Shown here: one piece after another, positions 2,152 to 26,155 of the stretch
How positions within the stretch are numbered: position 1 is the first letter of the stretch
Layout: the number at the start of each line of letters is the position of its first letter
Assembly: GCF_900182635.1 (NCBI RefSeq)
Contig: NZ_FXTD01000007.1
Location: 124,001 to 188,000 of the forward strand
Direction of reading: 5' to 3'
DNA length: 64,000 bases
DNA from: Halorubrum cibi
GTDB taxonomy: Archaea; Halobacteriota; Halobacteria; Halobacteriales; Haloferacaceae
Translations under genes and position numbers: made by a program
The notes under the pieces: model-generated
The model's input: the letters and a program-made list of their open reading frames with translations, nothing else
The model's database searches: none
Told to the model about the DNA's origin: nothing

Positions 2152-3744
2152 CTAACAGAGCAAGAGGTATAGCCAGTATGGCAGTTCAATAATACCATCG
2201 TTGGGCTGCTGAATTGGTTCGATCCCACGGACGGTATCGCCCGCGAGGAGGAACCCAACTGGGGCGTCGTATGTGTCTTGGAATTCTTGGAGCGCGTCAA
2301 GGGCTGTCTCACGAGTCCGTGATCGGTACGCCAGCGCGATCGGGACCGGCGTCTCTCCAACCTCGAAGACGAAGTCGACTTCGCCCTCTCGGCCGCGCCA
2401 GTACTTCACAGCGGGCGTCGAGTCCGTTCCGTGTGCGGCGTTGACCCCGTAAGCAAACCGCATCGTGTGGTCAAAGGCTGCAATACGGGCAAGTTCCGCT
2501 TCTCGTTGGAAGTCGTTACGTACCGTTGATGGGGCACCGTCGGCCAGCGCATTCACGAGCCCGGTATCGCGGAGGTAGAGTCTAACGCCACGTGGGCGAC
2601 TGTTGTCGTACTCCGTGACGCCGGTGAGTACGTACAGTTCAGCGAGCGCCGGCAGGTAGCTGTCGGCGATTGTGCGGCGATCGACATCGAACAACTCGAC
2701 GAGCTCTTGGTATCGGAATGACTCTGTCGCGCGGTTCCGGGCTGCCAACGCGCACAACCGTTCGAGGTCCGCAATTGTTTGAATCGATTCGAAGCCGGGC
2801 ACGTCCTGGTACAGCGCGGTTCGGACGTTGTCCCGAAGTTGTGTGTAGTCGTCATCGCTCAGTTCACGTGCTGAGTCGACAGCGCCATCCTGTTCGTAAC
2901 TGATGATGCCACCCATCGCAAGGTACTCGACAACCTGTGATTGGATACGAGCCTCTGCGTCAGCGACTTTCTCATACTTCTCTTGTAGTTCTGTGATAAG
3001 CCCGGAGAGGTTGCCATCGTCTATTGCGGCCGGGAGGCTGTTGGTGCCCGCGCGTATCGAACTCGGGCTGACGCGGGTCTCTTCCTCTTCGAGGTCGGGA
3101 TAAAGCGTGAACAGATAATCTCGGAATTTTTCGGGGAGGATGGGTTGGACGTCGTATGCGTCTTGTGGGACGTCGCTGTCGGTGAGTTCTCGGGTTATCT
3201 GTACGTCAGCACTGGCAGTCAGCGCGAGGTGTCGATCCGACGGTTCGTCGATGAGGTCAGCGACAGCTGTTCCCCACCCGTCGATCGTTGGCTTGTTGGC
3301 GTGTTCGATCTGGTGGATGTCGTCAAGGAGGATGAACTGCGGCGCGTCGTCAGGCGCGCGTCCGTAGACACGGCTCTCATAATACCGGATGGCGCGTGCG
3401 AGTTGCTCGTCGGATTGGAGTTGATACAGCGGGTTCGCGTCGAACGGAAGATAGAGGAATTGCTCAGGGACGTCGCCGGCGTCGATGCGGTGGTGGATAA
3501 ACTGGTGGAGCAGCGTGGTTTTGCCGACGCCGCGACGCCCGACGAGTGCGAGGATGGGCTGGTCTTCGAACTGACTGCCGGACGCGTGTGGCCGTGCGAG
3601 ATGGTAGAAATCACTTTTGTGGCGCGCAGGAAGATCGAACGCGTCGGCTCCGTCGTCCCACCACGGATTGTGCTCGTGGAGGGATTCGACAAGGGCGTCG
3701 CCAGCATCGAGAGCCATAGGATGTTGTATCTCAAAGAGTACCAT
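2152..3744 (-). CDS. AAA+ ATPase, DUF4143-like
   Basis: This is a 530-aa ATPase of the AAA_14/DUF4143 type, common in archaea and of unknown exact role. Walker A GRRGVGKTT is at residues 69-77 and Walker B FILLDDIH at about 136-143. A winged-helix-like middle follows, then the usual YLRDTGLVNAL segment. The C-terminal part contains YWRGREGEVDFVFEV, which looks like the PD-(D/E)XK-type fold seen at the end of this family. An in-frame ATG at 3717 (MALDAGDALVESLHEH) is an equally good start. It stands alone between mre11 and the vWA gene. A decayed copy of its 3' end lies at 25861-26152. Confidence 0.85.
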   Translation of the reverse strand: MVLFEIQHPMALDAGDALVESLHEHNPWWDDGADAFDLPARHKSDFYHLARPHASGSQFEDQPILALVGRRGVGKTTLLHQFIHHRIDAGDVPEQFLYLPFDANPLYQLQSDEQLARAIRYYESRVYGRAPDDAPQFILLDDIHQIEHANKPTIDGWGTAVADLIDEPSDRHLALTASADVQITRELTDSDVPQDAYDVQPILPEKFRDYLFTLYPDLEEEETRVSPSSIRAGTNSLPAAIDDGNLSGLITELQEKYEKVADAEARIQSQVVEYLAMGGIISYEQDGAVDSARELSDDDYTQLRDNVRTALYQDVPGFESIQTIADLERLCALAARNRATESFRYQELVELFDVDRRTIADSYLPALAELYVLTGVTEYDNSRPRGVRLYLRDTGLVNALADGAPSTVRNDFQREAELARIAAFDHTMRFAYGVNAAHGTDSTPAVKYWRGREGEVDFVFEVGETPVPIALAYRSRTRETALDALQEFQDTYDAPVGFLLAGDTVRGIEPIQQPNDGIIELPYWLYLLLC

Positions 3745-4050
3745 CGCAATGGTTGTTACGATTGATTACTCTGCGTTGTAGCGTCCGCTTTGTGCGGTTG
3801 ATACGCGCTCTCTGTCTGTTTTCGCTCCTCTATATCAATAAGCCGCACCACGGTGTTGATTATCATTAATCGAATCGCTCTCAAATGCATTTTAACGAAG
3901 GAGTTAAAACACGATGGCGCATACTATTGCGTGTAAGTGTGACAAAAACGCCACTGCGATGGTGCTTATCTGATTACGCACGGCGGCGATGCGTGTACTG
4001 TGGTTGAGGGCCCGCGGGTTGCCCGGGTAAACGGCAGCCACCACACCACT
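3745..4050. other. Divergent intergenic region
   Basis: About 300 bp between the outward-facing ATPase and vWA genes. It is AT-richer than its surroundings and must hold the promoters of both. No RNA gene, repeat or conserved small reading frame was recognised. Confidence 0.4.
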
Positions 4051-6126
4051 ATGGACGATACATTTACCGACACACGACCCGGGGACCGGCTCGATATTGA
4101 CGCTGAATTCGTCACCATACGCACGATCGACTGCGACGGCGCGCCAGTGTCCCGACTCCTCGTTACCGACCAGACAGGTGATCAGCTCACCGTGCTAGCC
4201 ACACCAGACAGCCATTCGCTGTGGCCGCTCAAGACCGGTGCTATGTACGCGTTCTCACAGCTGCTCGCCGCCGACCCGGTCGATACCTCGTCGACGACGG
4301 CCCACAGCTGTCCGCATTGTGGCGATCAGCTCCGGGCCGGACAGGTACTCGACACTGCTGACTCCACAGTCGTGAGCGCGGCAGACACATTCGGGATCGA
4401 CGAGCGCTTCCTCATCCTCGACTCGACGTCGTCGCTCACACGCCTCTCTGCTGGTGCACAAGCCGACGACTGGGTGCCGATGCGTGATAAGCCGGTCACC
4501 GCACCCGACTACGTCTGTCCGTCCTGTGGTCGTCACGTCGATGAGTTCGAACTTCATCATGCCGAGCACGGTGCCGATGCTGAGATGCACGCAGATGCGA
4601 GTCCCGGGGGGCTGAACTGCATATCGAATTCCGAGACGGTCGGTCTCGCTACTGGTGGAGCGAAAGACGTGACGAATTTCCGGGAAAACGTTGTGAACGG
4701 ATACACTCCGGAACCGGACGCGATCAGCGACGAAGGGCTGTTTTACGACTACTACTTCGAGACGGGCGAGCGAACGGCGACAGAGTCACTGTTCGCACCA
4801 CGGTACGCAGCGGCAGTTACAGAGCATCCGATTTCTGGTGAGACCGAGCAGTACCTCTCGGTCGGACTCGACTCGACGCTGTCAGTCGACGAGTTCGAGC
4901 GGCCGCGACTCGACCTCGTGGCGGTGCTCGATGTCTCGGGATCGATGTCTAGTCAGTTCGACGAATACTACTACGACGAGCAGGGCCGCCAATGCGAGGC
5001 TGACACCGGCGGCCAGACGAAGATCGACGCCGCGACGCAGTCGCTGTGTGCGCTCACCGAACAGCTCCACGCGGAGGATCGACTCGGTGTCGTTCTCTAC
5101 AACCACCGCGCCCACGTGGCGAAACCCATCCGGGATGTGGGGGCGACGGACATGCCCGCGATTCGACAGCACATCCGTGAGATCGCAGCCGGCGGCAGCA
5201 CGAATATGGAAGACGGGTTCGCAGCCGCTGTCGATATGCTGGCCGATGGGACGACCAGTTCAGACGTTGAGCGCCGCGTCATCTTCATGACCGATATGAT
5301 GCCCAATACCGGTGAAACGGGCGCGAGTGAACTCACCGACCTGTTCGCTGACGCAGCCGCCGACGGTATTCACACGACGTTTATCGGCATGGGGTTGGAC
5401 GCAAACGCCGAACTGGCAGACGCGGTGTCGGGGATCCGCGGCGCGAACCACTACTTCATCCACTCCGCAGACGAGTTCGAACAGCGACTCGGCGACGAGT
5501 TCGCCTACATGGTGACACCACTCGTATACGACCTCGAGTTAGCACTAGACGCAGACGGGTACGAGATCGAGGCTGTCCACGGCTCTCCATCGAGCGATGC
5601 TGCCAGTGACCAACTTATGCACGTCGGGTCGCTGTTCCCGTCGGCCAAGCAAGACGGCGAGGCCCGCGGTGGGGTGCTCCTGATTCGACTCGCTCCAACA
5701 GACGGAGAGGGGAGCCTCGCACTACAGGCTTCGTGGACGGACCGCAACGGGGGCGAACACACCGAGTGCACGTCGGTCTCGCTGCCCGACGAAACAGGCT
5801 CGTTCACGCACAACGGTGTGCGGAAGGCCGTCGCACTCGCCCGGTATGCCCGAGAGCTTCGCGCATGGGCCCGCGACGTCCACGACGGCTCTGCCACCGG
5901 GACTGGCATCGACGACTGGCTGCTACCGGACCAACGTGGTGAGCACGAGCGCGAGTCGGTGCCACTAGTCGTCTCTGACCAGTACGCACACCGCTTCGCT
6001 ACGCTCCGCAGTTATTTGCTCGATGAAGTGGAGGCCGTGAACGACGAGTCGATGTCCCAAGAGCTGTCGTTGCTCGACACGCTTTGGCGGTCGAACGTAC
6101 AACAGGAGGCCGAGATCTCGAAATGA
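4051..6126 (+). CDS. von Willebrand factor A domain protein with zinc-ribbon Cys pairs
   Basis: This protein has about 691 residues from the ATG at 4051. An in-frame GTG at 4000 is possible, but the sequence before MDDTFTDTRPGD looks like leader. The N-terminal 80 residues look OB-like (VTIRTIDCDGAPVSRLLVTD). They are followed by two Cys pairs, CPHC at about residue 88 and CPSC at about 156, which probably bind one zinc. The vWA domain starts at about residue 290 with an intact MIDAS DVSGS (294-298) and later GGSTN and TDMMP. It is split by an insertion containing EYYYDEQGRQ. The C-terminus resembles the beta domain that follows vWA in archaeal proteins. The next gene begins about 65 bp downstream and is a likely partner. 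Substrate and role are unknown. Confidence 0.8.
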   Translation: MDDTFTDTRPGDRLDIDAEFVTIRTIDCDGAPVSRLLVTDQTGDQLTVLATPDSHSLWPLKTGAMYAFSQLLAADPVDTSSTTAHSCPHCGDQLRAGQVLDTADSTVVSAADTFGIDERFLILDSTSSLTRLSAGAQADDWVPMRDKPVTAPDYVCPSCGRHVDEFELHHAEHGADAEMHADASPGGLNCISNSETVGLATGGAKDVTNFRENVVNGYTPEPDAISDEGLFYDYYFETGERTATESLFAPRYAAAVTEHPISGETEQYLSVGLDSTLSVDEFERPRLDLVAVLDVSGSMSSQFDEYYYDEQGRQCEADTGGQTKIDAATQSLCALTEQLHAEDRLGVVLYNHRAHVAKPIRDVGATDMPAIRQHIREIAAGGSTNMEDGFAAAVDMLADGTTSSDVERRVIFMTDMMPNTGETGASELTDLFADAAADGIHTTFIGMGLDANAELADAVSGIRGANHYFIHSADEFEQRLGDEFAYMVTPLVYDLELALDADGYEIEAVHGSPSSDAASDQLMHVGSLFPSAKQDGEARGGVLLIRLAPTDGEGSLALQASWTDRNGGEHTECTSVSLPDETGSFTHNGVRKAVALARYARELRAWARDVHDGSATGTGIDDWLLPDQRGEHERESVPLVVSDQYAHRFATLRSYLLDEVEAVNDESMSQELSLLDTLWRSNVQQEAEISK

Positions 6127-6169: not shown

Positions 6170-6190
6170 ACTGTGGTCACGAGGCATCGT

Positions 6191-7582
6191 ATGACTCGGT
6201 CTACGCTCAGCCATTCATTGACCCCAGCGCTCACTGCGTGGCGAGATATGGTGTCTGAGAGCCCTATCTCCCCCGGCATCGATTTTACCGAGACGAACCG
6301 AACGCACGCATGCGAGCAGCAACTCGACGTGTTTCTCACTGACCCATCTCCCGAGACGTTTCGTGCCTTGTGGAACGCCAACACGTTGGCGAGTTATTGG
6401 GCTCCGAGTGCTGCTGTCCTGCTCGGTCCTGACTCCGCGATTGACTCACTATACGATGTGTTCGCTGAGATGACCGACGCCGATGCGTTCGATCCGACAT
6501 GGCTTGATCGACTCGCTGGGTCCGATCCTGGGTGGGGCATCCACGAACTATACGCTCGGCTCCAAGGTGGAGCCCATCCCATCCCCACGCTCGAAGCCCA
6601 AACCGTGCTCCGTTCACTCGGATATGACAACGTCGGGACGCCTGACGTTGTTGTAACCGCGATTTCGGAGTTTGCAGAGGACTACGAGTCGGTCGTGGGG
6701 CACGCCTCTGTTGGAACCTCGTACGAAGTGCCGCTGTACGCGGAAATTGACGAGTTTTTCAAACTCGTACAGACCGCTGACCGCGACACGATCAACGCCC
6801 AGCTCACCGGGCCACACGCAGCGTTGTTCCGCCCGCTCATCGGACACCGCGTCCACACCAGCAGCGCAGACCCAATTGAATGGGACGGCGTCGATGCGCT
6901 CATCGAATCACACGTGGATGCTCGTGACTCGGGTGCGTACGACGACCTCGAAACCGCTCACTGGGGCGGTACGCATATCGAATCGTGGAAATGGCAGTTC
7001 GCAGAATATTTCGAGGACGTAATTCGTGCCCAATTTGACCTCACAGAATTGACTCCAACAGAGATCCCGCAGTTCTTCGCAGCGATCGAAGAGCCTGACG
7101 CGGAGTTCGACGCGGTGTCGAACGTGCCTGCAAAAATGATGGGCGGACAGTTCCTCCGGCTGACGTGGCAGGACATCGTCGCGCACTGTCACGAGAATTC
7201 GGAGGATGCTGCTGCCGTGCTCAGCGATCTCTACAATGAAGACCTCCCAATTGTCGATCGGCTCAACGAGTTCTATGAGTTCTTCCATCACCTCACCACG
7301 CGAGCCGACAACGCTCGGGGCCCCGGATCACTCCTCCGTGCCGCGACGGCATTGCTAATGTACGCGTACCCGGATCGACACATCACGTTTCAGTACCGGC
7401 GCATGGATCACTTCTTCGCGGCGTACTCAACGCTTGATGGCCTTGACACCGGATTCAACGCTCGCCAATATCACGAAGTTGCTGTCGCGTGCCGCGAGCT
7501 CATGCGCAAAATCGATGCCCGTGCCGGTGACGCGTCAATGATCGACGTACAGACGCTCATCTATATCGCCGACGACGCTTGA
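6191..7582 (+). CDS. Uncharacterised protein downstream of the vWA gene
   Basis: This is a 463-aa acidic, mostly helical protein that I do not recognise with certainty. It has no Walker motif, transmembrane segment or metal-binding cluster. Segments such as YEVPLYAEIDEFF, TAHWGGTHIESWKW and YAYPDRHITFQYRRMDHFF recall regions that precede the AAA+ domain in McrB-like archaeal proteins, but no AAA+ domain follows. It could be a stand-alone target-recognition or adaptor protein. The start is taken at the ATG at 6191 because of the TATA-like box 27 bp upstream. It follows the vWA gene on the same strand. Confidence 0.65.
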   Translation: MTRSTLSHSLTPALTAWRDMVSESPISPGIDFTETNRTHACEQQLDVFLTDPSPETFRALWNANTLASYWAPSAAVLLGPDSAIDSLYDVFAEMTDADAFDPTWLDRLAGSDPGWGIHELYARLQGGAHPIPTLEAQTVLRSLGYDNVGTPDVVVTAISEFAEDYESVVGHASVGTSYEVPLYAEIDEFFKLVQTADRDTINAQLTGPHAALFRPLIGHRVHTSSADPIEWDGVDALIESHVDARDSGAYDDLETAHWGGTHIESWKWQFAEYFEDVIRAQFDLTELTPTEIPQFFAAIEEPDAEFDAVSNVPAKMMGGQFLRLTWQDIVAHCHENSEDAAAVLSDLYNEDLPIVDRLNEFYEFFHHLTTRADNARGPGSLLRAATALLMYAYPDRHITFQYRRMDHFFAAYSTLDGLDTGFNARQYHEVAVACRELMRKIDARAGDASMIDVQTLIYIADDA

Positions 7583-7708
7583 CGCACTGTTAGGGCCAGG
7601 GGCTCTCTCGGCTGTGAGTACTTTCCGATTGTTCGTTGGTTCTGACGTTGTCCCCTGACTCAATAACTCAAATGAGCTGTGATAGACGGTGATATTTTGG
7701 TCGCCGAG

Positions 7709-7717
7709 TTTATATGA
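7709..7717 (+). promoter_or_regulatory. TATA box of the zinc-finger helicase gene
   Basis: TTTATATGA is centred about 28 bp before the ATG at 7741, the spacing expected for a haloarchaeal promoter with a very short leader. A second AT run (AATATATAG) lies just downstream. Confidence 0.55.
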
Positions 7718-7740
7718 TTCGTGGGGAATATATAGTTTAG

Positions 7741-10629
7741 ATGAGTGTTTTGGAGTGTCCTAGTTGTGAAGATCGAACTACGACCTGTAGTGGCCTGCTG
7801 AAACACATTCGAGATGTCCATCTTCCAAGGGATCTCGAAGATCTTGAGATCTGTCCTGAGTGTAAGTCGAATATCTCTGAGGCCACCTTCACTCTACATC
7901 TGTCTTGTTTTATTGACATAGATCATTCCGAAGTTGAATTCCTTCGTGGAGGGCATCAGTATCTCTGCCAACTATGCGGGAACCGCGAGTCCGAGATAAG
8001 CCAGCTTACTTCTCATCTCAAAAATCATGCTCGCGCAGACGTGAGGAAATTCTTAGGCGCAGAGACGTACTGTGCGGGGTGTGACGACCAAATCAGTGCT
8101 GATGAAGAATTAAGCGATCATATCGGTTGTCTCGAAAATCATCTTGACTCTGACGGGAGGTATGACTGTCCGGGATGTGATTCAAAAGCAGATACGAAGA
8201 GCAAAATCTTCTGGCACATTTGGACAGACCACTGGGGCGGTACCAGCGAAGTTGAACAATGTCCCGGTTGTGGCCAATCCATCTCTCTTCACGAGATACG
8301 GAATCATCTGTCTTGCATTGATGAGTTTGAGTCTCACACGGTCATGGCATTGGCTTCGCCGCGTTACTCAGACTGTTTCATCTGCGACTACGCTGCATTC
8401 AACAAGAGAGCATTAGCAGAGCACATAAAAACGGAGCATGCTGGTTCGGATATCTCTTCTTCATGTCCGGACTGTGGTGAGCAGTCATACGACATTTCTG
8501 ACCAGAAATTCGAACGGCACTATCTTTCACTCGCCAAGGAAGCCGGCATAGATCTCGCCGTAGAAACATCAACAACGTATCTGCGATGCCCAGCGTGTAC
8601 CACCCGAGTGGACAAGCGTGACTCGCTTGTGGGGCACATCAACGATGAGCACGACGAGCTGTTTGAGATCGAGGGTGAGTGTAATGTCTGTAGTCAGCCG
8701 TTCTCGGGAAGCGATCATATTGCCTGTCTGGTGAATCTCGGGACAAAAATTGACGAGGCACCGATACCGCAACCGGCTAATCTCTCTCGGAGACAACCAC
8801 CCGCAAAGACACATACCAGTGTATCGTCTCTGGGAGCTTCAGAGACCGCTTATCGTAACGAGTTGCTCAACTTCGTCAGTTTAGAACGAGAACAAGAGCG
8901 AGAGACAGCATGGAACGAGTATAATGAACTACCACTCTACGAACTCACCCAGCACCGAAGTTGTATCGAGGAGTTAGTCCCACTCGGCAAGCAACACAAC
9001 CCTCACGTTAATGTTCAGTACGTGTTTGAGCGCCCTGTCCCAGAAGACGAGCACGAACCAGCCGAATTGACTGAACGGTTTGGGATCTTCCCTCGGCAAC
9101 AAGTGATACTGGGGAGCACGCACGGCGGTTCCGTACTCCCTATTGAAGCATCGGTAACATTCACTGATGATCAGACAATCGGAATTTCTCCGAAACAAGG
9201 GGACAACAGTTGGAGCGCAGTCCACACCGCTCTGACCAATGACGATGCAGATTTCCACATTGTGGATTTACTCAATCCAACTCCCTACGACAGAGAACGC
9301 GATGCGACAAAAGAGGCATTCAAAACTGACCGCATCAGAAAGCCACTCTCAGGGAAAGCCACGCTCACAGAGACCAATATCGGGAGTACAACTGCGTATT
9401 CCGGTCTCCTGAATAATCATCAGCGAACGGCGGTGGAGCGGGCATTAGGAGCGGATACTGTCTTCTGTATTCACGGTCCCCCAGGAACAGGGAAGACGCG
9501 AACGCTAACTGCCCTAATTGAGTTAGCCGTTGCTCGTGGCGATCGGGTTCTTGCCTGTGCACACTCGAACCCCGCTATCGATAATCTTCTCGTCGGCTCA
9601 TCACAGCCCGACGCTATTGACAAAGATAGCCTCCACGCCACAGTTCAAAACACGGACATCAAGATGGCCAGAGTTGGCTACCACTCCGAGAACGCTGTCG
9701 TTAATGCTCACTACTCACACGTCCCCCGAGCCGGCGCTGATATCATCGGATCGACGACGAATGCCGCTGCAGCCTTAGATGCTGATTCGTTTGATTTAGT
9801 CGTCGTCGACGAAGCGACTCAGGCAAGCCAACCGGCGACGTTAGTTCCATGGCTCAAAGGAACTCCGCTTGTTCTCGCCGGCGATCACAGACAACTTCCG
9901 CCATACTGCTCTAATGAGACCGCTAAAGACGAAGAACTACACATTTCTCTCTTCGAGCATCTATTCAATTTGTATGGGTCCGACGTGAGTGAGCGCCTAG
10001 ATATCCAATATCGCATGAACAGTGAAATTGCTAATTTCGCTAGTGAAGCGTTCTACGACCGCCCACTCCAACACGGCCCAGAGAATAATGATTGGACCAT
10101 CGGAGATCTCGAATCAATTATCGGACTCAACGTAGCCGGTGACGAGGAAACAACCGACCAGACCTCCTCGAAGTTCAATTCTGCAGAAGCCGACGTTGTT
10201 GCTCGGTCAGTGAAACACCTGCTAAGCTACGATGTTGATGCTACAGACATTGGTATCATAACGCCATACACCGCTCAGATACGCGAGATTCGAGAGGCAT
10301 TAGACGACAAGGAAATCCACGGCCGTAGCAACATCAAGATCGACACCATCGATAGTTTCCAAGGCTCTGAACGGGAGGCTATTATTGTCTCCTTCGTTCG
10401 ATCGAATCCCTACAATAGCAGCGGGTTTCTGACCTTCCCGGACGAGGGTAAACTCCGTCTGAACGTCGCGCTCACCCGGGCAAGACGCAGACTTGTGCTC
10501 GTCGGAAACTGGGAGACTCTTTCTACAGTTGCAGACCACAAATCTCCTGACGAGAGTTCTGCTGATGTATACGCTCAACTTCACGAGTATCTAAACGAAA
10601 TGGGGCGACTCCGGGACATCAGTCTATAG
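7741..10629 (+). CDS. Ten-zinc-finger / SF1 Upf1-like helicase fusion
   Basis: This is a 962-aa protein in two parts. Residues 6 to about 335 hold ten short zinc fingers, each starting with CxxC. Most odd-numbered fingers end in H-x3/4-H (as in HIRDVHL, HIKTEH, HINDEH). Most even-numbered ones end in H-x2/3-C (HLSCF, HIGCL, HLSCI, HIACL). The C-terminal part is an SF1 helicase of the Upf1/IGHMBP2/Dna2 class. It has Walker A GPPGTGKT (579-586), DEAT (690-693), GDHRQLPP (about 714-721), QYRM (about 756), a motif with FQGSEREAI (about 873-881) and NVALTRARRR (about 908). All motifs look intact. The likely activity is ATP-dependent 5'-3' unwinding of DNA or RNA, with the fingers choosing the substrate. 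A fragment of its last 34 codons is duplicated at 26156-26258. Confidence 0.88.
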   Translation: MSVLECPSCEDRTTTCSGLLKHIRDVHLPRDLEDLEICPECKSNISEATFTLHLSCFIDIDHSEVEFLRGGHQYLCQLCGNRESEISQLTSHLKNHARADVRKFLGAETYCAGCDDQISADEELSDHIGCLENHLDSDGRYDCPGCDSKADTKSKIFWHIWTDHWGGTSEVEQCPGCGQSISLHEIRNHLSCIDEFESHTVMALASPRYSDCFICDYAAFNKRALAEHIKTEHAGSDISSSCPDCGEQSYDISDQKFERHYLSLAKEAGIDLAVETSTTYLRCPACTTRVDKRDSLVGHINDEHDELFEIEGECNVCSQPFSGSDHIACLVNLGTKIDEAPIPQPANLSRRQPPAKTHTSVSSLGASETAYRNELLNFVSLEREQERETAWNEYNELPLYELTQHRSCIEELVPLGKQHNPHVNVQYVFERPVPEDEHEPAELTERFGIFPRQQVILGSTHGGSVLPIEASVTFTDDQTIGISPKQGDNSWSAVHTALTNDDADFHIVDLLNPTPYDRERDATKEAFKTDRIRKPLSGKATLTETNIGSTTAYSGLLNNHQRTAVERALGADTVFCIHGPPGTGKTRTLTALIELAVARGDRVLACAHSNPAIDNLLVGSSQPDAIDKDSLHATVQNTDIKMARVGYHSENAVVNAHYSHVPRAGADIIGSTTNAAAALDADSFDLVVVDEATQASQPATLVPWLKGTPLVLAGDHRQLPPYCSNETAKDEELHISLFEHLFNLYGSDVSERLDIQYRMNSEIANFASEAFYDRPLQHGPENNDWTIGDLESIIGLNVAGDEETTDQTSSKFNSAEADVVARSVKHLLSYDVDATDIGIITPYTAQIREIREALDDKEIHGRSNIKIDTIDSFQGSEREAIIVSFVRSNPYNSSGFLTFPDEGKLRLNVALTRARRRLVLVGNWETLSTVADHKSPDESSADVYAQLHEYLNEMGRLRDISL

Positions 10630-10691
10630 CTGCCGTTCACCAGCGGATTGTCAACACATACCATTAAGTTCAACAACATATAATTAGTTGT

Positions 10692-11129
10692 ATGGCTTCG
10701 AATGAGGATCGCTACGGTTACGGTCATCGCCAAGACCCAGCACACGATATCGGTGACTCAGCACCAGGAACAGTCGGTGACAGTGAAGGAACGTTCCATG
10801 ACCGGGCTCGCAAAGGGACGAACGTTATCGTTGACGGGAAAGTGACGTCGCAGGAAAAGCACAAGCGCTCATCCCAGCAGTCGGAGTCGCAATCGAAGTC
10901 GAAGCAGAATAAGACATCTCACAGCTCAAAGCCCGCCTCAATGTCAGAACTTGAGGGGACTGAAGTAACAGTCACTGTCGATCGTATCAGCGGGAGCGGG
11001 AACGCGATTGCTGAATACAAAGGGCGGCACATCCACGTTGAAAACGGAAACGCGGGCGAAGAATACCGCGTTCGCCTCCAAGCAGAAAATAGCTATTTCA
11101 TCGGCGAGCAAATCAAGGTCCAAAGCTGA
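10692..11129 (+). CDS. TRAM domain protein
   Basis: This is a 145-aa protein. The last 60 residues form a TRAM domain, a small beta-barrel that binds RNA (seen parts: VTVDRISGSGNAIAEYKG, NAGEEYRVRL). Stand-alone TRAM proteins are numerous in archaea and have been proposed as RNA chaperones. The first 50 residues carry a motif HDIGDSAPGTVGDSEG, and a Gln/Ser/Lys-rich linker follows. A very similar N-terminal motif occurs in the unrelated protein at 14498-14860. It begins 62 bp after the helicase gene, probably in one transcript. A frameshifted copy of gene and upstream region lies at 26321-26759. Confidence 0.82.
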   Translation: MASNEDRYGYGHRQDPAHDIGDSAPGTVGDSEGTFHDRARKGTNVIVDGKVTSQEKHKRSSQQSESQSKSKQNKTSHSSKPASMSELEGTEVTVTVDRISGSGNAIAEYKGRHIHVENGNAGEEYRVRLQAENSYFIGEQIKVQS

Positions 11130-11338: not shown

Positions 11339-11731
11339 TTAATCAGTTCCTTGAACTTGACGGCAAATGGTTTGGAGATCATCCCTAAACTGTTCTGTAG
11401 CACTAGGTTCATCGTATCGCGTATGAACACAGCGCTCTCTGACGGTAGACTCTGAGACATCGAATGCGGAAGCAACGCTCGTGAACGCCCGATCAAGGGC
11501 GCTTTCGGGCCCGGTCCTGTAGCGGTTGCCCACTTTCTTTTTTGCTGGTCCGCCAACGAACTTACAGAATTCCTGTGCTACGGCGACACGGTACTCTGCT
11601 TCGGTGATGTTCCCATTACCTTCGATCACATTGAGCGTGGCTGTGACGAGTTCTTCATCAAACTGTTCAATAAGATGGTCTCGAAGTCCGTGCAATTCGT
11701 CGAATTCAAATGGTGGGGTATTGTCGGTCAT
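11339..11731 (-). CDS. Small helical protein with HTH-like segment
   Basis: This is a 130-aa protein that I do not recognise. It is helical, with a segment reading FTSVASAFDVSESTVRER that has the spacing of a helix-turn-helix, so DNA binding is plausible. It stands alone, transcribed towards the TRAM gene, with 209 bp of gene-free sequence on its 3' side. Codon use and composition look like a real gene. Confidence 0.55.
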   Translation of the reverse strand: MTDNTPPFEFDELHGLRDHLIEQFDEELVTATLNVIEGNGNITEAEYRVAVAQEFCKFVGGPAKKKVGNRYRTGPESALDRAFTSVASAFDVSESTVRERCVHTRYDEPSATEQFRDDLQTICRQVQGTD

Positions 11732-11934: not shown

Positions 11935-14322
11935 GTGAATCTATCCTATCATCATGCGAACCCAACTGGGGGAAATGAATCCTTTCTCTTGCGATTTCAG
12001 TCTACACAGACTGATGATCCAACAACCATCTTGGTTGATGCCGGTGCAGAACTTGAGTTTGATAGGATACTGAATCCTGGCGAAACAATTGACGCTGTCT
12101 GTCTCACTCACGCGCACTCGGATCATTACCAGTCTCTAAATCAGTGTGTAGACCCCAACACGTCAGTATACACCTCGCCAGCAACGGCGAAAATCATCGG
12201 CGACGTGTTCGATATCGCCACACAACAGACAGGCGTTGAAGCGGATGATTCGATGGTAGCGGCGATCGAACCGGTCGACGAGTGGACGTCGGTCGGATCA
12301 GAAGTAGCGTTTCATCCGATTCCTGCCGGCCACGTCCCAGGGGCAGTGGGGTACCTATTCCGATTTGAGAAGGATCAGGGTGTCGACACCGGGTATATTC
12401 TTGCGACGGGTGATTTTACACTCACCCGGGCGGGCGGCTATCCGGGACTCCCACTTGAGTCGATTCAAGACGTAGATGTTCTGTTTCTCACCGTGGCGAC
12501 GAGCAGCAACTTCTCTTCAGAGTTGTCTGAGGGGCTAGGTATTGCGCTACAGCAAGCACATAGCGGAATGCAGACACTCGTCACGACAAGCGGTATTGTG
12601 GGTGTTCACGTTGCGTATCTATTGGGCGCGTTGATTGAGCAATTTGAACTTGGAGTCCAAGTACGCGTCGTTGGGCAGGCCGCAAAGCTGTATGAGCGAT
12701 TGGGATACGAGGCAGACACTGTCCAACCTGTCCCGGAGTTTTCGCATACCGATGAGGCCTTAGGACGCGGGATAATCACGATCGCTGGCCCAGATGTTCC
12801 GAGTGAACGTAGTTCTGGCCGACTATATGGCGTGTTACGGGATCAGCCAGACGCGTGTGTCGTACAGCTGATTGGGTCCGGTCAATCTCCGATTCGGAGC
12901 GGACAGTGTACCGTTCATGACTTCCGCATCGTGAACCATCCGGAATACGACGCGCTAGAATCGGTACATGAGTCGGCTAACCCACAGCACACCGTTATCA
13001 CGCATACGCATCGCGGGGCTGGTAACCAATTCAATTATCTCGATAGTAACGTTTGGTCACCATCGGATGCTGGCGAGTACACGCTGTACGCGAATGGACA
13101 GTGGCGCGCACCGCCGTGGGCTCCCAACGGCGGTCGGACCCCAACACAAGCCACGACGCAAAGCGTCGGTGCATTAACTGAAACAGATCTCTTTTCCGAT
13201 ATTGATTTGCCCAGTCTATCACGTTCCCCAACGGTCGATCTTCCCGCTGAAGGCATTGACATCGAGCACGTGAAACAGGTACTGGCCCAGGAGACGGCGT
13301 ATACCGGCCCGACCACAACAGAGGCGTCTGCTAGCGCTCCCGGCTCCTCGACGGCAACTGCCCGCAAATCAGACTCACCCAGCATGACAACCTCAGATGA
13401 CGATCAGGACGATACGAAATCCGACTCGCAAGGCTCACCTGCCGAATCCGTAGGGCTTGTTCGCACCACTGGCGCATCATTCAATCAACTTGATGACTGG
13501 GTTGTGTCCGCAATACAATCCGGGGAGCTCTCAAAAGGAGATCTCAAAGAAATCGTACGGCGTAGTCAGCAGCCAGCGACATCGGCAGACGAAACCGAGT
13601 CACCTGATGATGAAAATACCGATAGCCCTGATGATGCCGATCACAGTACTTCACAATCTGTTTCAGCTCGTTCAACCGCTGAGTCTGATGATTCGGACGC
13701 TACTACGCCGGCAGACAGTGATGATGATGTGGATTCTCCTGATGCTCCATCCGTGTCGCCGGATTCGAAGCCGGAAACAGAAACAACCGAAACTCAACCC
13801 TCGTCGGAAATTCCGGAAACGGAAACGACCGAGTCTCAACCCGCACCAGAATCACCTACTACATCGCCTGAGCAGGAAGACCATCGGGCATTCTCTGTTG
13901 TGTTAGAGCCGCTAACAACTGCACTTGCCACTTACCTCATAGCAGAGACTAACGAAGGTCCGATAACCATCGCTGATGTCGCTACCGACGCGACGACAGC
14001 ATACATTGGTGACCGACTTCGTGGAACAGAGACTGAACCGGAGACCAGTGTCTCCTCACACTCGTCGATAGTGGATCAGGCCTTAGCTGGCGTAGTTGCG
14101 GATTCCGATGAGTTCAGTGATCTTGATTCGTTCAAAACCATGGCCTACGGAGAGCTCCTTGGAGATTTTGTCGGACTCGACACAGACGACCAGACACCAA
14201 CCGTGACGATCCGCGTTGACCCAGCACTCGTCGACGCCGTTACCGAACATCCTTCATCGACTGCTCAATCACGTGAAGACATCGTCGCTACCGCGGTTCG
14301 ATGGTACGTTGTGAGTACGTAG
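11935..14322 (+). CDS. Metallo-beta-lactamase fold protein with long acidic linker and RHH-like C-terminus
   Basis: This is a 795-aa protein from a GTG start. The N-terminal ~390 residues are a metallo-beta-lactamase fold of the RNase J/CPSF73-like class. The active-site motif THAHSDH holds H59, H61, D63 and H64. It is followed by AGHVPGAVGYLF and ATGDFTLTRAGGY, which supply further metal ligands, and by VITHTHRGAGNQF near residue 350. A linker of about 220 residues rich in Asp, Glu, Ser and Thr follows. It contains the near-tandem repeat ETETTETQP / ETETTESQP. The last 45 residues (VTIRVDPALVDAV, SREDIVATAVRWYV) look like a ribbon-helix-helix DNA-binding unit. A nuclease recruited to DNA is a reasonable inference. 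The substrate is unknown. Confidence 0.8.
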   Translation: MNLSYHHANPTGGNESFLLRFQSTQTDDPTTILVDAGAELEFDRILNPGETIDAVCLTHAHSDHYQSLNQCVDPNTSVYTSPATAKIIGDVFDIATQQTGVEADDSMVAAIEPVDEWTSVGSEVAFHPIPAGHVPGAVGYLFRFEKDQGVDTGYILATGDFTLTRAGGYPGLPLESIQDVDVLFLTVATSSNFSSELSEGLGIALQQAHSGMQTLVTTSGIVGVHVAYLLGALIEQFELGVQVRVVGQAAKLYERLGYEADTVQPVPEFSHTDEALGRGIITIAGPDVPSERSSGRLYGVLRDQPDACVVQLIGSGQSPIRSGQCTVHDFRIVNHPEYDALESVHESANPQHTVITHTHRGAGNQFNYLDSNVWSPSDAGEYTLYANGQWRAPPWAPNGGRTPTQATTQSVGALTETDLFSDIDLPSLSRSPTVDLPAEGIDIEHVKQVLAQETAYTGPTTTEASASAPGSSTATARKSDSPSMTTSDDDQDDTKSDSQGSPAESVGLVRTTGASFNQLDDWVVSAIQSGELSKGDLKEIVRRSQQPATSADETESPDDENTDSPDDADHSTSQSVSARSTAESDDSDATTPADSDDDVDSPDAPSVSPDSKPETETTETQPSSEIPETETTESQPAPESPTTSPEQEDHRAFSVVLEPLTTALATYLIAETNEGPITIADVATDATTAYIGDRLRGTETEPETSVSSHSSIVDQALAGVVADSDEFSDLDSFKTMAYGELLGDFVGLDTDDQTPTVTIRVDPALVDAVTEHPSSTAQSREDIVATAVRWYVVST

Positions 14323-17493: not shown

Positions 17494-18873
17494 CTATTCT
17501 CTCTTAGACAGACCACCGAGGAACTCACCGATAGGATCTTCATCGAACACATCTTGATACACCTCTTCAAACACATCGTTCATCACTATCGGAAGTTCAC
17601 AATAGGGACCACAGAACTCAGAGACAGCAGTGTCTAGCTGGTCGAAGTATGAGCCAACCAAATTATTCGGATCAAGCGGGTAGTCTTTGGTAACGAGCGC
17701 CGATGCACTCCCTAGTCGTATATCGTCAACACCGATCTTCGTTAGTGCGTCGTGGATTCGATCGTTGTACGTGGAGAGGCACTTCTCAGCAAACAACGTG
17801 TTAAACGAGTGCCCGCTGTCCTGCGTTTCAGTATGGACGTTTCGGGCGGGTGGCAGCCGAAGCCTGAATCGAAGCGTTTGGTTTCGGAGTAGCTCAGTCG
17901 TCGGTGAATGGCGGTAGAATAACTGAATTGTGCTGGTGCTGTTCAGCGGGTCTTGGTCCCAATACGCCGGGAAGAGCTTCTGATACTCTGGGTTGCTCGA
18001 TACTGAAGTGGTCCACCCAGATTCTTCAATGTTGTACTTACTGACGAGTTTATCGACCCAGTTGTCCTGTAGATAGGTGCTTACATCATCGAAGTCGCTT
18101 TCGAACTGGCTGTTCGCCTGCTCTACTTGCTGAATCAGGTCGCTGTGCTCGAAATACACGTTGAGGCGTTCATTGAGTTCGTCCTCGTCAATAGCTGAGT
18201 CCATACCCTCTGTCTCTTTCAGCGACTGAATAAAATCTGTGAACTGAATAACACTCCGGTTCGGATACTCAAAGAGCGACGCCTGTGTCCCGGCCTCAAA
18301 ACTCTCCGCGAGGTCCGCCCATGAAACAGCCTCAAATATGGACTCTGTCGGACTGTCAGCAGCCTCGCGTTTCAGGTATACGTATTTTGTCGATTCTAGT
18401 TTCTCAATCTCTATGGTATCTGCGTCAAACCAACTGAAATCCCACGTGTCCGCCTCAGCGTACTTGCGAGTTTGTTCTGTCCCTTCTTCTGCACCGACCT
18501 TCAATTCAAGAAACACCGCCCAGCGTGGATGGTCACCCAACGCACTCCCACCAGCAATAATCAGGTCAATCCGCCCTTCTCCTTCGTCGCCCGCAATCCA
18601 CACTTCATCTTCAATCTCGATGTGCTGGCCAGATAAATTGAACTCATAGAAATCAATGCACTCGAAAAACTGACTGAGTAGCGTGTATCTGAATCCGTGC
18701 GATTTCCGCGGATCTAAGAAGTATTGTAGCGTATCTTGGTATTTTTTCTCTCTTGACGCAGAGAGTATCGAATAGATACCTTGCGGACGTTGTGTCCGCC
18801 GGTCAAGTTCCATATACTGCTGTACAAACTTCTCTAACTCCTCACGCTCAAGCTCCGGAGAATCATCAGCCAT
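17494..18873 (-). CDS. PD-(D/E)XK nuclease family protein (PDDEXK_4 type)
   Basis: This is a 459-aa protein. Residues ~95-140 hold a clear nuclease core. GRIDLIIAGGS gives the acidic residue, AVFLELKVGAEEGT gives the ExK, and EQTRKYAE is the conserved helix that follows in the PDDEXK_4 family. This family is common in prokaryotic accessory regions and rarely has a known substrate. The remaining ~300 residues are helical without recognised motifs. The ATG at 18873 is well supported. Its neighbours are the Mrr-like gene downstream and a small Cys4 protein gene divergently upstream. Confidence 0.75.
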   Translation of the reverse strand: MADDSPELEREELEKFVQQYMELDRRTQRPQGIYSILSASREKKYQDTLQYFLDPRKSHGFRYTLLSQFFECIDFYEFNLSGQHIEIEDEVWIAGDEGEGRIDLIIAGGSALGDHPRWAVFLELKVGAEEGTEQTRKYAEADTWDFSWFDADTIEIEKLESTKYVYLKREAADSPTESIFEAVSWADLAESFEAGTQASLFEYPNRSVIQFTDFIQSLKETEGMDSAIDEDELNERLNVYFEHSDLIQQVEQANSQFESDFDDVSTYLQDNWVDKLVSKYNIEESGWTTSVSSNPEYQKLFPAYWDQDPLNSTSTIQLFYRHSPTTELLRNQTLRFRLRLPPARNVHTETQDSGHSFNTLFAEKCLSTYNDRIHDALTKIGVDDIRLGSASALVTKDYPLDPNNLVGSYFDQLDTAVSEFCGPYCELPIVMNDVFEEVYQDVFDEDPIGEFLGGLSKRE

Positions 18874-19029
18874 GGGTACGCTACGTTCCTACCGGTTCTT
18901 CAAACTGATTGGCACTGTTAACGAGCCAGGACGTTCGTTCTCGTCCCGCCTCTGTATTCTCCTGTACGGTAACGGGGCTAGAAACCCAGACACGAATGCT
19001 TTTGCGTGGGGTTTGAGAACTCCCGGGTC

Positions 19030-19383
19030 ATGACAAATCACATAGAGCCCACCGAGGAGTATGACGGGCGAATCAGAGTGAAACTCCTTGATGACCATGC
19101 CGATACACGAGTGATCCCGTGTTCATCCTACACAGAGGCAATAACGCTCGTCAAAGAACATCAACACGAGGTTACCACCGCGAAAATCATCGACCGAGAG
19201 CAAGAAGTGGTCTTCAGCTCAGCCGACATGGACATCGACGTCTGGGAGTCGATTTGGAAAAACGAAAAACGTCGCCAATCGGTCAACGTCGAGGACCGCG
19301 ACTGCCCGTACGATAACATCTCCTGCTTTTTCGATGACCTCTGTGTCCAATGTAAGATGGACAAATTACAGGACGAGTTCTAA
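19030..19383 (+). CDS. Small protein with C-terminal Cys4 cluster
   Basis: This is a 117-aa protein starting MTNHIEPTEEY. The first ~80 residues form a small alpha/beta domain. The C-terminal tail has CPYDNISCFFDDLCVQCKMD, a C-x6-C-x5-C-x2-C arrangement that would bind one zinc. I do not recognise a function. About 40 bp upstream of the ATG are shared with a second copy at 27918-28145, in which the gene is cut by a stop before the Cys4 tail. It lies about 150 bp from the divergent PD-(D/E)XK gene. Confidence 0.65.
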   Translation: MTNHIEPTEEYDGRIRVKLLDDHADTRVIPCSSYTEAITLVKEHQHEVTTAKIIDREQEVVFSSADMDIDVWESIWKNEKRRQSVNVEDRDCPYDNISCFFDDLCVQCKMDKLQDEF

Positions 19384-19638
19384 CCCATTTAGCAGAGGCG
19401 AGGGTATTACCAACGTTGTTCGAAGCAATCGAGCAACGTATTGAGTCGCTTTGGTGAATGTTCTATTTGCTCAATCTGAGCAGCGGCCACACAGACTGAT
19501 CGTTAACTGGCCGTTATCCGGGCCGTCGAGAAGTTGCTATCAGTGCCGCTCATAACTAGCCGAAATGTTACCAGCCGAGTCACAACGGCCCATCGCTACT
19601 TGCGGAGAAATCGTCTGTAATGGCGTCTTACAAGCCTG

Positions 19639-20151
19639 CTATCCGCGTTCTGCAACAGACAGATATAATGCGTAATTTCCCGTTTTCTCACCAGTCTCCC
19701 GGTCCTCAGTCTCCTTCAGGTTAATCTCAACCCGACGACTGTAGTCCTCCATATCGACAACCCAGCGGAATAGCCCTGCGATGGTTTCAATGAATTGGGG
19801 ATCGCCGGTAATTCGAATATTTGAGATATCTGTCGGGTATGTGCTCCCCTCAAAGTCGCTCGGCTTTTCCATCATCGCTCGCTTCATCTCGGCCCCCGAC
19901 GGTCGATCTCGATCCTTCAGCCAATCCATCGCTTCCGATTTCGGTATACTTCCTGATTTTGTCGTTGGAAGCGACTCTAGTTTTGTTTTTGTGGACTCCC
20001 CACCGTCGGCAACACCAAGGTTCTCCTCAGCCTCATTTTCGAACGATTCTGACTTCCCATCCTGTATTTCGTACTCTGCGCCGCAATTTTCACACTGACC
20101 ACTCCCATTCTGTGGGGTTATCATACTCCCACAGTCGTCACAAAAGTACAT
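19639..20151 (-). CDS. Zinc-ribbon protein with small C-terminal domain
   Basis: This is a 170-aa protein from the ATG at 20151. The first 30 residues (MYFCDDCGSM, CENCGAEYEI) form a two-CxxC zinc ribbon like that at the N-terminus of RNA polymerase subunit M/TFS proteins. An acidic linker follows, then an uncharacterised C-terminal domain (ITGDPQFIETIAGLFRWVV, RRVEINLKETEDRETGEKTG). It is not a TFS because the acidic DE dipeptide of the second ribbon is missing. An upstream GTG-type start would add 18 residues. The function is unknown. Confidence 0.6.
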   Translation of the reverse strand: MYFCDDCGSMITPQNGSGQCENCGAEYEIQDGKSESFENEAEENLGVADGGESTKTKLESLPTTKSGSIPKSEAMDWLKDRDRPSGAEMKRAMMEKPSDFEGSTYPTDISNIRITGDPQFIETIAGLFRWVVDMEDYSRRVEINLKETEDRETGEKTGNYALYLSVAERG

Positions 20152-20410
20152 GGAACAGGTACATATCCCGAATCTGATAAAGTTGTCTGAGGAATATGGG
20201 ATCACAAAAACACATGATGGAGAGACTCATGTCCCGACTACTCTCTCAGTTAGTATCAGAAGCGTTTGGTGTCGTTGGAACGCTCATCCATGCTCTGACC
20301 GGAATTGCGAGATAATTCAACACAAAAAGGAGGTTACCGGTGCCGTCAGCGACGGTTCTTGAGCGCAGCAGGTCGGGTCAGAACCTCCTACTTCGTTTGA
20401 ACAAGCGCAT

Positions 20411-20612
20411 CACGAAAACTCCGGCCGTTCAGCATACCCGATCGGATCGCGTGACCCAGCATTCCGGAACGCCTCAAGCCGGAACGCACACGCATCACAC
20501 GTCCCACACGCCGGCTCCGTGCCCCAATCTTAATCGTCTGCTGAAACACGTCGTAAAAGGCCGAGCGGCAATAGGATATCTTTGGAAATGAGCCGAGTGT
20601 GCGCGAATAAAC
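20411..20612 (-). pseudogene. queC remnant 1 (3' end plus internal piece)
   Basis: The sequence matches the complementary strand of the intact queC at 38285-38974. First comes the last ~110 bp of the gene (AERPEFS-stop, [18 protein letters not shown] equivalents), then, after loss of roughly 115 bp, the stretch equivalent to 38510-38610. The reading frame is destroyed. It has the same orientation as the intact gene. It marks the left side of the HicA/HicB module. Confidence 0.8.
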
Positions 20613-20640
20613 TGCCGACGAGTCGGCGTCGAGCCGATCG

Positions 20641-20892
20641 TCACCGGTGCTCGTCGATCCACTCACACCACGCGTGGAAGTCGTCGGCTCCGCACTGATC
20701 AGCAATCGACTGCAGCGTTCCAGTCGGGATTTCGTCTTCTGACGCCATCGGAACAGTCACGATCCGGACTTCATCCGTATCTGGTGATTCATACCGCATT
20801 TTCAGGTGACTACCGACACGACCGACACGCTTGTACCCGAAGTCGTGGAGGACAGACGCAATCTCGCGCCCGGAGAAGTTCGTCCGGACCAT
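20641..20892 (-). CDS. hicA: HicA-type mRNA interferase toxin
   Basis: This is an 83-aa protein with the small dsRBD-like fold of HicA/YcfA toxins. It contains REIASVLHDFGYKRV, then GSHLKMRY with the catalytic-type histidine at residue 29, and IVTVPMASEDEIPTGTLQSI. HicA toxins cleave mRNA and are blocked by HicB. Its start directly abuts the stop of the antitoxin gene (20893), so the pair is co-translated in the order antitoxin then toxin. It lies between queC remnants 1 and 2. Confidence 0.85.
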   Translation of the reverse strand: MVRTNFSGREIASVLHDFGYKRVGRVGSHLKMRYESPDTDEVRIVTVPMASEDEIPTGTLQSIADQCGADDFHAWCEWIDEHR

Positions 20893-21153
20893 TCACCGCA
20901 TAAATTCGGGAAGCTCCTTGTCACCGGGCTCCGTCTCTTCGAGGTCCCACTCTTCGATATCCTCATCAGTGACGGGTTCGCCGCCGCCTTCGTGAAGTTC
21001 GATCGCCTCCGCAAGCATCCGGAGCGCTTCCGCTTTCGTCTCGCCGAAGGAGGCGACACCGGTCTCGATATCTCTCGCAGTGATCGAGCCGTCATCCTCG
21101 TGAATGAACTCGACGCCTTCCCCGTTGGATGCGTCGCGTGTCGCACTCGCCAT
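20893..21153 (-). CDS. hicB: HicB-type antitoxin
   Basis: This is an 86-aa protein from the ATG at 21153 (MASATRDASNGEG). It has the HicB core: a strand pair (VEFIHEDDGSITARDIETGV), then ASFGETKAEALRMLAEAIEL and an acidic C-terminus. An upstream extension of the frame runs into queC remnant 2 and is not part of the gene. It neutralises the adjacent HicA toxin. The lack of a separate DNA-binding domain is usual for the short haloarchaeal form. Confidence 0.83.
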   Translation of the reverse strand: MASATRDASNGEGVEFIHEDDGSITARDIETGVASFGETKAEALRMLAEAIELHEGGGEPVTDEDIEEWDLEETEPGDKELPEFMR

Positions 21154-21256
21154 ACTCTTTCTTCGTGGACCGCTCGAATAAGCGTTCTGTCGGCTGCGAC
21201 CGAGAGGGTGAACACACAGCCCCGCTACAAAAGCAGGACGCGGACTGGCCGATGAA

Positions 21257-21410
21257 TACGAAAATTCCGGCCGCTCAGCATAGCCAATCGGATCACGTGA
21301 CACGGTATTCCGGAACGCCTCAAGCCGCATAGATATCACACGTCCCACACGCCGGCACCTCATCCCGATAACACGACTACCTGATGTCGTCCGGTACACC
21401 AAGCTACGGT
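21257..21410 (-). pseudogene. queC remnant 2 (3' end)
   Basis: This is a second copy of the queC 3' end in the same orientation as the intact gene, with a small internal deletion where the Cys-rich motif would be. Similarity continues to the segment equivalent to 38285-38460 and then stops. No queC stop codon is kept at its end. It separates the HicA/HicB module from the HTH/TumE-like module. Confidence 0.78.
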
Positions 21411-21484
21411 AAAACAGAATTAATTCAGTAGACCACAGATATATGTCGCTACGAACCGACGTCTGTACTAACGAGGCGACACGA

Positions 21485-22054
21485 ATGGACGTTACTGACA
21501 TCCCTGAGGAAGCGTACGACGGTGCGGAATCGCCGCCGGACCTCACCGAACTTGAGTCACCTGAGACGCTTCTCAAAGACGGACCGACCCGCGAACGGCT
21601 CCTTGATGTCATCACCGGGCTTCGAACTCCCACAAAGGTCTCCGAGATCGCTGACCTCGCTGACTGCGGGACTGAGACTGCCCGAGACTATCTCGCGTGG
21701 TTCGATGAGATGGGCATGGTCCATCGCCATGACGGGCGGCCCGTCCGGTACGAGCGCAACGACGCGTACTTTCAGTGGCGACGCATCGACCGTCTCCGCG
21801 ACGAATACTCCGAGCAGGAAATCGTTGACCTCCTTGCAGACACACTCGACGAGATCGACGCGTACAGAACACAGTTCGACGCAGCCGATCCGAACGACGT
21901 CTCTCTCGTCGACGCCAGTCAAGACAGAGCAACTGAAGACGCGTGGGAGGCACTCTCTGAGTGGAAGACGCTTGAACAGCGAGCAGCGCTCCTCGACGCG
22001 GCGCGACGTGACCACCCGCCCTCCGGTAGCACTCCCAGTCACATCGATGCCTGA
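21485..22054 (+). CDS. HTH protein, probable antitoxin partner of the TumE-like gene
   Basis: This is a 189-aa protein from the ATG at 21485 (MDVTDIPEEAYD). An upstream in-frame ATG at 21443 is possible. Residues ~50-95 form a winged helix-turn-helix (TPTKVSEIADLADCGTETAR, LAWFDEMGMVHRHDGRPVRY). A helical C-terminus follows. Such HTH proteins commonly precede the TumE-like gene in haloarchaea. Here the stop overlaps the next start by 8 bp. A role as DNA-binding antitoxin and autoregulator is inferred from this arrangement. Confidence 0.75.
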   Translation: MDVTDIPEEAYDGAESPPDLTELESPETLLKDGPTRERLLDVITGLRTPTKVSEIADLADCGTETARDYLAWFDEMGMVHRHDGRPVRYERNDAYFQWRRIDRLRDEYSEQEIVDLLADTLDEIDAYRTQFDAADPNDVSLVDASQDRATEDAWEALSEWKTLEQRAALLDAARRDHPPSGSTPSHIDA

Positions 22055-22484: not shown

Positions 22485-22498
22485 AATCGACTCGTGAG

Positions 22499-22603
22499 TT
22501 ACGAAAACTCCGGCCGTTCAGCATACCCGATCGGATCGCGTGACCCAGCATTCCGGAACGCCTCAAGCCGGAACGCACACGCGTCACACAACCCACACGC
22601 CGG
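22499..22603 (-). pseudogene. queC remnant 3 (3' end, ~105 bp)
   Basis: This is a third copy of the queC 3' end in the same orientation, keeping a TAA stop and ending abruptly after the bases equivalent to 38391. The sequence is nearly identical to remnant 1 over about 100 bp. It lies 15 bp after the TumE-like gene and directly beside gene fragments of other origin. Confidence 0.8.
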
Positions 22604-22608
22604 AATGG

Positions 22609-25850: not shown

Positions 25851-25860
25851 AAAAACACCC

Positions 25861-26152: not shown

Positions 26153-26155
26153 CAC

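What the first reader, a model, noticed from the sequence alone, without database searches (positions are those of the whole stretch)
7741..10629. Ten zinc fingers fused to a Upf1-like helicase
Fingers of mostly alternating C2H2-like and C2HC-like endings run for over 300 residues in front of an intact SF1 motor. Long finger arrays are rare in archaea. The alternation suggests paired units, perhaps reading a nucleic acid like a eukaryotic array or forming a large binding surface.
Basis: seen in the sequence. Interest (0 to 1): 0.65.

Follow-up and report, generated by a model that had tools for sequence, protein, structure and literature searches.

The report
Ten-finger archaeal UPF1-like helicase
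A salt-loving archaeon carries, in a gene island that looks like an anti-virus arsenal, a UPF1-type helicase with ten zinc fingers arranged as five matched pairs; the same ten-finger layout is kept in three distant relatives, so it is real and under selection, but what the fingers grip is not yet known.

Summary
Window 7741-10629 (+) encodes 962 aa: ten zinc fingers (residues 6-329), then a stalk/1B-like region and an intact SF1 motor of the UPF1/IGHMBP2 type. I found three diverged homologues (42-45% identical overall, about 30% in the array) on a Halalkaliarchaeum plasmid and in two unnamed haloarchaeal genomes. All have ten fingers in the same order; 38 of 40 zinc ligands are invariant against 17 of 290 other residues. 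Odd fingers are C2H2, even fingers mostly C2HC. Linkers are shorter within pairs than between pairs, so the paired-unit idea is supported. The four proteins form one clade by motor sequence (99/99); finger-less relatives carry a different short N-terminal domain. The type is rare: four genomes among three fully searched families (441 genomes) plus order and phylum samples. Context is a mobile, defence-like island (vWA, metallo-beta-lactamase, AAA and TRAM-like genes). In a near-identical island of another species this gene is replaced by a 42% identical ten-finger helicase in the opposite orientation. Most likely it is an accessory helicase of an anti-mobile-element module, the array selecting substrate or partner. 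That function, and sequence reading by the fingers, are inferred. New variant of a known kind.

The parts
7741..10629 (+). Ten-finger UPF1-like helicase gene, 962 aa
   Evidence: ORF; full-length homologues
7756..8727 (+). Zinc-finger array, residues 6-329: five C2H2/C2HC pairs
   Evidence: ligands 38/40 invariant in four homologues; zf-Di19 over cut-off in all four
7756..7908 (+). Pair 1: finger 1 C2H2 (7756-7821), finger 2 C2HC (7852-7908)
7966..8130 (+). Pair 2: finger 3 C2H2 (7966-8028), finger 4 C2HC (8071-8130; C2H2-like in G489)
8167..8316 (+). Pair 3: finger 5 C2H2 (8167-8232, conserved H-I/L-W), finger 6 C2HC (8260-8316)
8374..8529 (+). Pair 4: finger 7 C2H2 (8374-8439), finger 8 (8464-8529; last Cys is Ser here, Cys in the three homologues)
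8587..8727 (+). Pair 5: finger 9 C2H2 (8587-8652), finger 10 C2HC (8680-8727)
8797..9375 (+). Stalk / 1B-like region before the motor (residues 353-545), shared with finger-less relatives
   Evidence: tblastn hits begin here in relatives; domain name by analogy with UPF1, not modelled
9409..10509 (+). SF1 motor, AAA_11 + AAA_12, IGHMBP2/UPF1 type
   Evidence: Pfam; best solved relatives IGHMBP2 and Upf1
4000..6126 (+). vWA-domain protein of the same module
   Evidence: VWA; 94% identical and syntenic in G489
6173..7582 (+). 469-aa protein, no Pfam domain; homologous to parts of haloarchaeal plasmid AAA ATPases
10692..11129 (+). Small TRAM-like protein next to the helicase; homologues or TRAM proteins sit beside many relatives of the helicase
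   Evidence: weak TRAM match 0.005, below cut-off; homologues adjacent; strong TRAM in Halorarius and G779 neighbours
11339..11731 (-). 130-aa protein with a weak helix-turn-helix match
   Evidence: 95% identical in G489
11935..14322 (+). Metallo-beta-lactamase-fold protein, HAHSDH motif, putative nuclease
   Evidence: Lactamase_B_2 2e-10; neighbour of the ten-finger helicase in AArc-CO, G489 and this window
2152..3744 (-). AAA_14 / DUF4143 ATPase, divergent neighbour of vWA
   Evidence: 95% identical in G489

Best explanation
It is an accessory UPF1/IGHMBP2-like SF1 helicase whose N-terminal region was exchanged once, on the lineage of four known proteins, for a ten-finger array built of five C2H2/C2HC pairs. 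The gene belongs to a mobile, defence-like module (vWA, AAA ATPase, 469-aa protein, TRAM-like protein, metallo-beta-lactamase protein). Shown: the array, its conservation, the intact motor motifs, one clade by motor phylogeny, the island context, and replacement of the gene by a diverged ten-finger helicase in an otherwise near-identical island. Inferred: the fingers form an extended binding surface that holds a foreign nucleic acid or a viral or partner protein; the motor then translocates on or remodels single-stranded RNA or DNA, with the TRAM-like protein as an RNA-binding helper; the metallo-beta-lactamase protein or another island nuclease finishes the target.
For: Ligand and layout conservation. 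Motor closest to IGHMBP2/UPF1, a clade used by known or candidate anti-phage proteins: MkoA and Hhe models match the motor, and CnuH of CoCoNuTs is UPF1-like (PMC11090510). One clade by motor, 99/99. Neighbours vWA, MBL and TRAM-like recur with the helicase or its finger-less relatives in several haloarchaeal plasmids. G489 island: flanks 92-95% identical, the helicase block 7617-10582 replaced by a 42% identical ten-finger helicase in the other orientation, with the old 3' end left behind. The window also carries restriction-type and 7-deazaguanine-type DNA-modification genes. TRAM proteins are RNA chaperones in archaea (PMC5572242, PMC6705878, abstracts only).
Against: No experiment, expression or virus data. 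The window's TRAM match is below Pfam's cut-off. MBL homologues also occur without the helicase, and G779 has no vWA or MBL within the stretch read. Structure prediction without an alignment failed (pLDDT 33-36). The motor is below the TIGR00376 equivalog cut-off.
Confidence: 0.5

Rival explanations
1. The array is a protein-binding scaffold that docks the helicase to island partners or to a viral protein, and does not touch nucleic acid.
For: Long, variable linkers (8-28 residues), no TGEKP linkers, contact positions not specially conserved; even fingers are C2HC with H-x2-C, and C2HC fingers of several kinds bind proteins (family knowledge); conserved hydrophobics such as the H-I/L-W in finger 5.
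Against: Best matches of the array profile to solved structures are nucleic-acid-binding arrays such as CTCF and TFIIIA, although any C2H2 profile would tend to do this.
Confidence: 0.35
2. A plasmid or island maintenance helicase (replication, recombination or repair of the mobile element), not defence.
For: IGHMBP2/DNA2-type motor; a finger-less relative lies beside orc1/cdc6 and an integrase in Salinigranum.
Against: Rare and swappable within the island, neighbours are restriction-like, no fixed link to replication genes in the four ten-finger loci.
Confidence: 0.25
3. An RNA-surveillance or mRNA-decay helper analogous to UPF1, acting with the TRAM-like protein on host transcripts.
For: UPF1-type motor; TRAM-like neighbour.
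Against: Patchy presence (four genomes) argues against a general host role.
Confidence: 0.15

Closest known systems
UPF1 / IGHMBP2 (SMUBP-2) SF1B helicases
   Same: Motor motifs and order; best solved relatives; stalk/1B-like region before motif I inferred.
   Different: Ten-finger N-terminal array in place of UPF1's CH domain or IGHMBP2's C-terminal R3H/AN1 (own knowledge); below the TIGR00376 cut-off.
ZNFX1 (NFX1-type zinc finger helicase)
   Same: UPF1-like motor plus many zinc fingers in one protein; ZNFX1 is among the solved matches (9q9z).
   Different: ZNFX1 fingers are NFX1 type and C-terminal (own knowledge); here C2H2/C2HC and N-terminal.
Finger-less haloarchaeal plasmid 'AAA domain-containing' helicases (Salinigranum, Halobacterium pHSAL2, Haloplanus and others)
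   Same: Motor and stalk/1B-like region, 36-48% identical over the aligned part; several have a TRAM-like or vWA/MBL neighbour.
   Different: About 140 aa of another N-terminal domain with no fingers.
CoCoNuT CnuH and Mokosh MkoA
   Same: UPF1-like motor in a prokaryotic defence setting.
   Different: No CnuB GTPase or coiled-coil nuclease, no PLD or kinase found among the neighbours scanned.
Eukaryotic C2H2 arrays (CTCF, TFIIIA, KRAB type)
   Same: Tandem fingers; most odd fingers have the classical C-x2-C-x12-H spacing.
   Different: C2H2/C2HC alternation, long linkers, fixed number of ten across deep divergence.
AFV1p06 and other archaeal viral C2H2 proteins (PMC3541406)
   Same: Classical zinc-finger fold in the archaeal world; AFV1p06 binds DNA.
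   Different: Single finger in a small protein against ten in a helicase.

Membership tests
UPF1/IGHMBP2-like SF1 helicase | SF1 motor motifs (Walker A, DEAx, GDxxQLPP, motif VI) and AAA_11/AAA_12 | tested here: met
   Pfam 3e-36 and 4e-48; IGHMBP2 top solved match, 1e-71
UPF1/IGHMBP2-like SF1 helicase | TIGR00376 IGHMBP2-family equivalog score | tested here: not met
   304.9 bits against cut-off 348.9
UPF1/IGHMBP2-like SF1 helicase | 5'-3' unwinding activity | not testable with these tools
   needs an assay
C2H2-type zinc finger array | Conserved zinc ligands with finger-like spacing | tested here: met
   38/40 invariant; zf-Di19 over cut-off in all four proteins
C2H2-type zinc finger array | Short TGEKP-type linkers of DNA-reading arrays | tested here: not met
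   linkers 8-28 residues
C2H2-type zinc finger array | Zinc binding and DNA/RNA recognition | not testable with these tools
   needs purified protein
Mokosh (MkoA) | Partner PLD nuclease or kinase domain with MkoA architecture | tested here: not met
   model matches the motor only; no PLD or kinase in neighbours scanned
CoCoNuT Type II/III | CnuB McrB-like GTPase with coiled-coil nuclease beside CnuH | tested here: not met
   none among neighbours scanned by Pfam
ZNFX1 | C-terminal NFX1-type fingers | tested here: not met
   fingers are N-terminal and C2H2/C2HC

The most novel reading that the evidence does not exclude
An archaeal defence helicase in which a stable array of five C2H2/C2HC finger pairs acts as a recognition module for invading RNA or DNA, a prokaryotic counterpart of zinc-finger antiviral helicases such as ZNFX1, with whole-gene replacement at a fixed island position as a source of specificity.
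Probability: 0.22. Interest if true: 0.8.

Novelty: new variant of a known kind. Interest (0 to 1): 0.55.

Why it matters
C2H2 fingers are described as almost exclusively eukaryotic and scarce in archaea (PMC3541406). A ten-finger array kept in order over deep divergence in archaea, fused to a UPF1-type motor, gives a testable case of long finger arrays outside eukaryotes and may bear on the prokaryotic roots of zinc-finger antiviral helicases. I found no paper on this architecture in the library searched.

Tried and rejected
Structure prediction of the array and of the motor half from single sequences: unusable (pLDDT 33 and 36), so no fold search was made; the homologues came from sources that the predictor does not accept. 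Viral contig scans with full and array alignments: no relatives. Phage records: no match to residues 1-545. Genome contigs: only the C-terminal 91 residues, at a contig end. zf-Di19 family survey of the order: weak single fingers only, none over cut-off, and it missed even this gene, so it says nothing about rarity. Weak profile hits looked at in three genomes: one is a tyrosine-recombinase-like protein with C-terminal fingers, one an Hsp70-like protein with two fingers, one a 306-aa protein with Cys-rich C-terminus; none is a ten-finger helicase. Literature search for archaeal UPF1-like zinc-finger helicases: none found. Idea that contact positions would be hypervariable: not seen with four sequences.

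Full report
Observation. The ORF at 7741-10629 (+) encodes 962 residues. Residues 6-329 hold ten zinc-finger units; residues about 353-545 precede the motor and are shared with finger-less relatives; residues 557-923 are an intact SF1 motor (AAA_11 3e-36, AAA_12 4e-48). The closest solved motors are IGHMBP2, yeast and human Upf1, DNA2, SEN1 and ZNFX1. The IGHMBP2-family model scores 304.9 bits, under its cut-off of 348.9, so this is a relative and not an equivalog. The window lies on a 227-kb contig of a 3.18-Mb haloarchaeal genome; its only named match in genome contigs is Halorubrum halophilum.

Homologues. A plasmid of Halalkaliarchaeum sp. AArc-CO holds a full-length homologue (44.6%). Its public annotation starts about 152 residues too late and hides the first four fingers, because the frame runs back to a Met codon at L020:10001. 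Profile searches added G489 (same genus) and G779 (another family). Three families were searched in full as held (170, 146 and 125 genomes), plus samples of the order (392) and the phylum (393): four ten-finger helicases in all. Phage records and viral contigs gave none.

The array is conserved. In the four-way alignment (identity to the window array 28-31%), 38 of 40 ligands are invariant against 17 of 290 other positions. The two exceptions are single proteins: Ser for Cys in finger 8 of the window, and finger 4 of G489, where a His follows in place of the Cys. Odd fingers are C2H2 and even fingers C2HC. With Cys and His masked, the odd/even split still gives the largest similarity contrast of all 126 five-five splits, though the margin over the next split is small. 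Linkers average 10-15 residues within pairs and 17-20 between pairs; in G779 the first within-pair linker is 28. Together this supports five paired units. Fingers at the same place in different proteins resemble each other more than fingers at different places, so the array arose before these proteins split and has kept its number.

Origin. A tree of the region after the array puts the four ten-finger proteins together (99/99), apart from 14 other haloarchaeal relatives. All eleven plasmid relatives inspected have about 140 residues of another N-terminal domain without fingers. The simplest reading is a single exchange of the N-terminal domain.

Context. In the window the order is AAA_14 ATPase (-), vWA, 469-aa protein, helicase, TRAM-like protein, HTH-like protein (-), metallo-beta-lactamase protein. 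In G489 the flanks are 92-95% identical, but the block 7617-10582 is replaced by the G489 helicase in the opposite orientation. The last 48 bases of the window-type helicase remain next to its TRAM-like gene, so the replacement happened in an island that once had the window type. AArc-CO has a metallo-beta-lactamase gene just upstream and a TRAM-like homologue just downstream. Finger-less relatives in two Halobaculum plasmids lie beside vWA and metallo-beta-lactamase genes, and DL31 has a broken relative beside the latter. TRAM-like homologues lie beside the helicase relatives of Halobacterium, Halalkalicoccus and Natrinema; clear TRAM proteins lie beside those of Halorarius and G779. Related vWA genes elsewhere sit with ATPases, helicases and, once, a CRISPR ring nuclease. 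The link is not strict: MBL homologues also occur without the helicase, and G779 lacks vWA and MBL in the 20 kb read.

Function. The motor clade, the patchy and mobile occurrence, the swap of diverged versions at one place, and the restriction-like neighbours fit an anti-mobile-element role best; I put this at about one half. The TRAM-like neighbour hints at RNA, since archaeal TRAM proteins are RNA chaperones (PMC5572242, PMC6705878, abstracts only). Whether the fingers touch nucleic acid or protein is open: linkers are not of the DNA-reading type, and contact positions show no special pattern with four sequences. Structure prediction failed for want of an admissible alignment.

Novelty. UPF1-like helicases in prokaryotic defence are known (CoCoNuTs, PMC11090510; Mokosh models), and zinc-finger UPF1-like helicases are known in eukaryotes (ZNFX1). 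A ten-finger, paired array at the N-terminus of such a helicase in archaea was not found in the literature searched. I rate it a new variant of a known kind.

Noticed in passing
window 25854-26759: Second, broken copy of the module: the end of the AAA_14 gene (copy of 2145-2442, 90%) is joined directly to the helicase 3' end plus the TRAM-like gene (copy of 10521-11129, 93%), with everything between missing.
   Followed up: partly
window 33322-62135: DNA-modification type island: QueC, QueE-like radical SAM, Vut_1 transporter, TGT/DpdA-like protein, a DpdJ-like helicase, two further large DEAD helicases (one with MZB), HATPase protein. May be a Dpd-like or BRIGADE system, the latter reported only in halophilic archaea (PMC12458937).
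   Followed up: partly
window 17494-25277: PD-(D/E)XK nuclease and Eco57I/N6-type methylase genes, further restriction-like content.
   Followed up: no
window 20412-20518, 21225-21405, 22500-22603, 38256-38439: Short DNA segments of about 100-180 bp repeated in the window at 75-97% identity, perhaps insertion remnants.
   Followed up: no
L046:4509-5696: Tyrosine-recombinase-like protein with C-terminal zinc fingers resembling fingers 9-10 of the array; similar hits in 401-aa open frames of G668, G831 and G698.
   Followed up: partly
L047:3406-5091: Hsp70-like protein with two C2H2-like fingers inserted.
   Followed up: no
L020:10001-10457: Public annotation of the AArc-CO homologue (WP_259532887.1) starts about 152 codons late and omits fingers 1-4.
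   Followed up: yes
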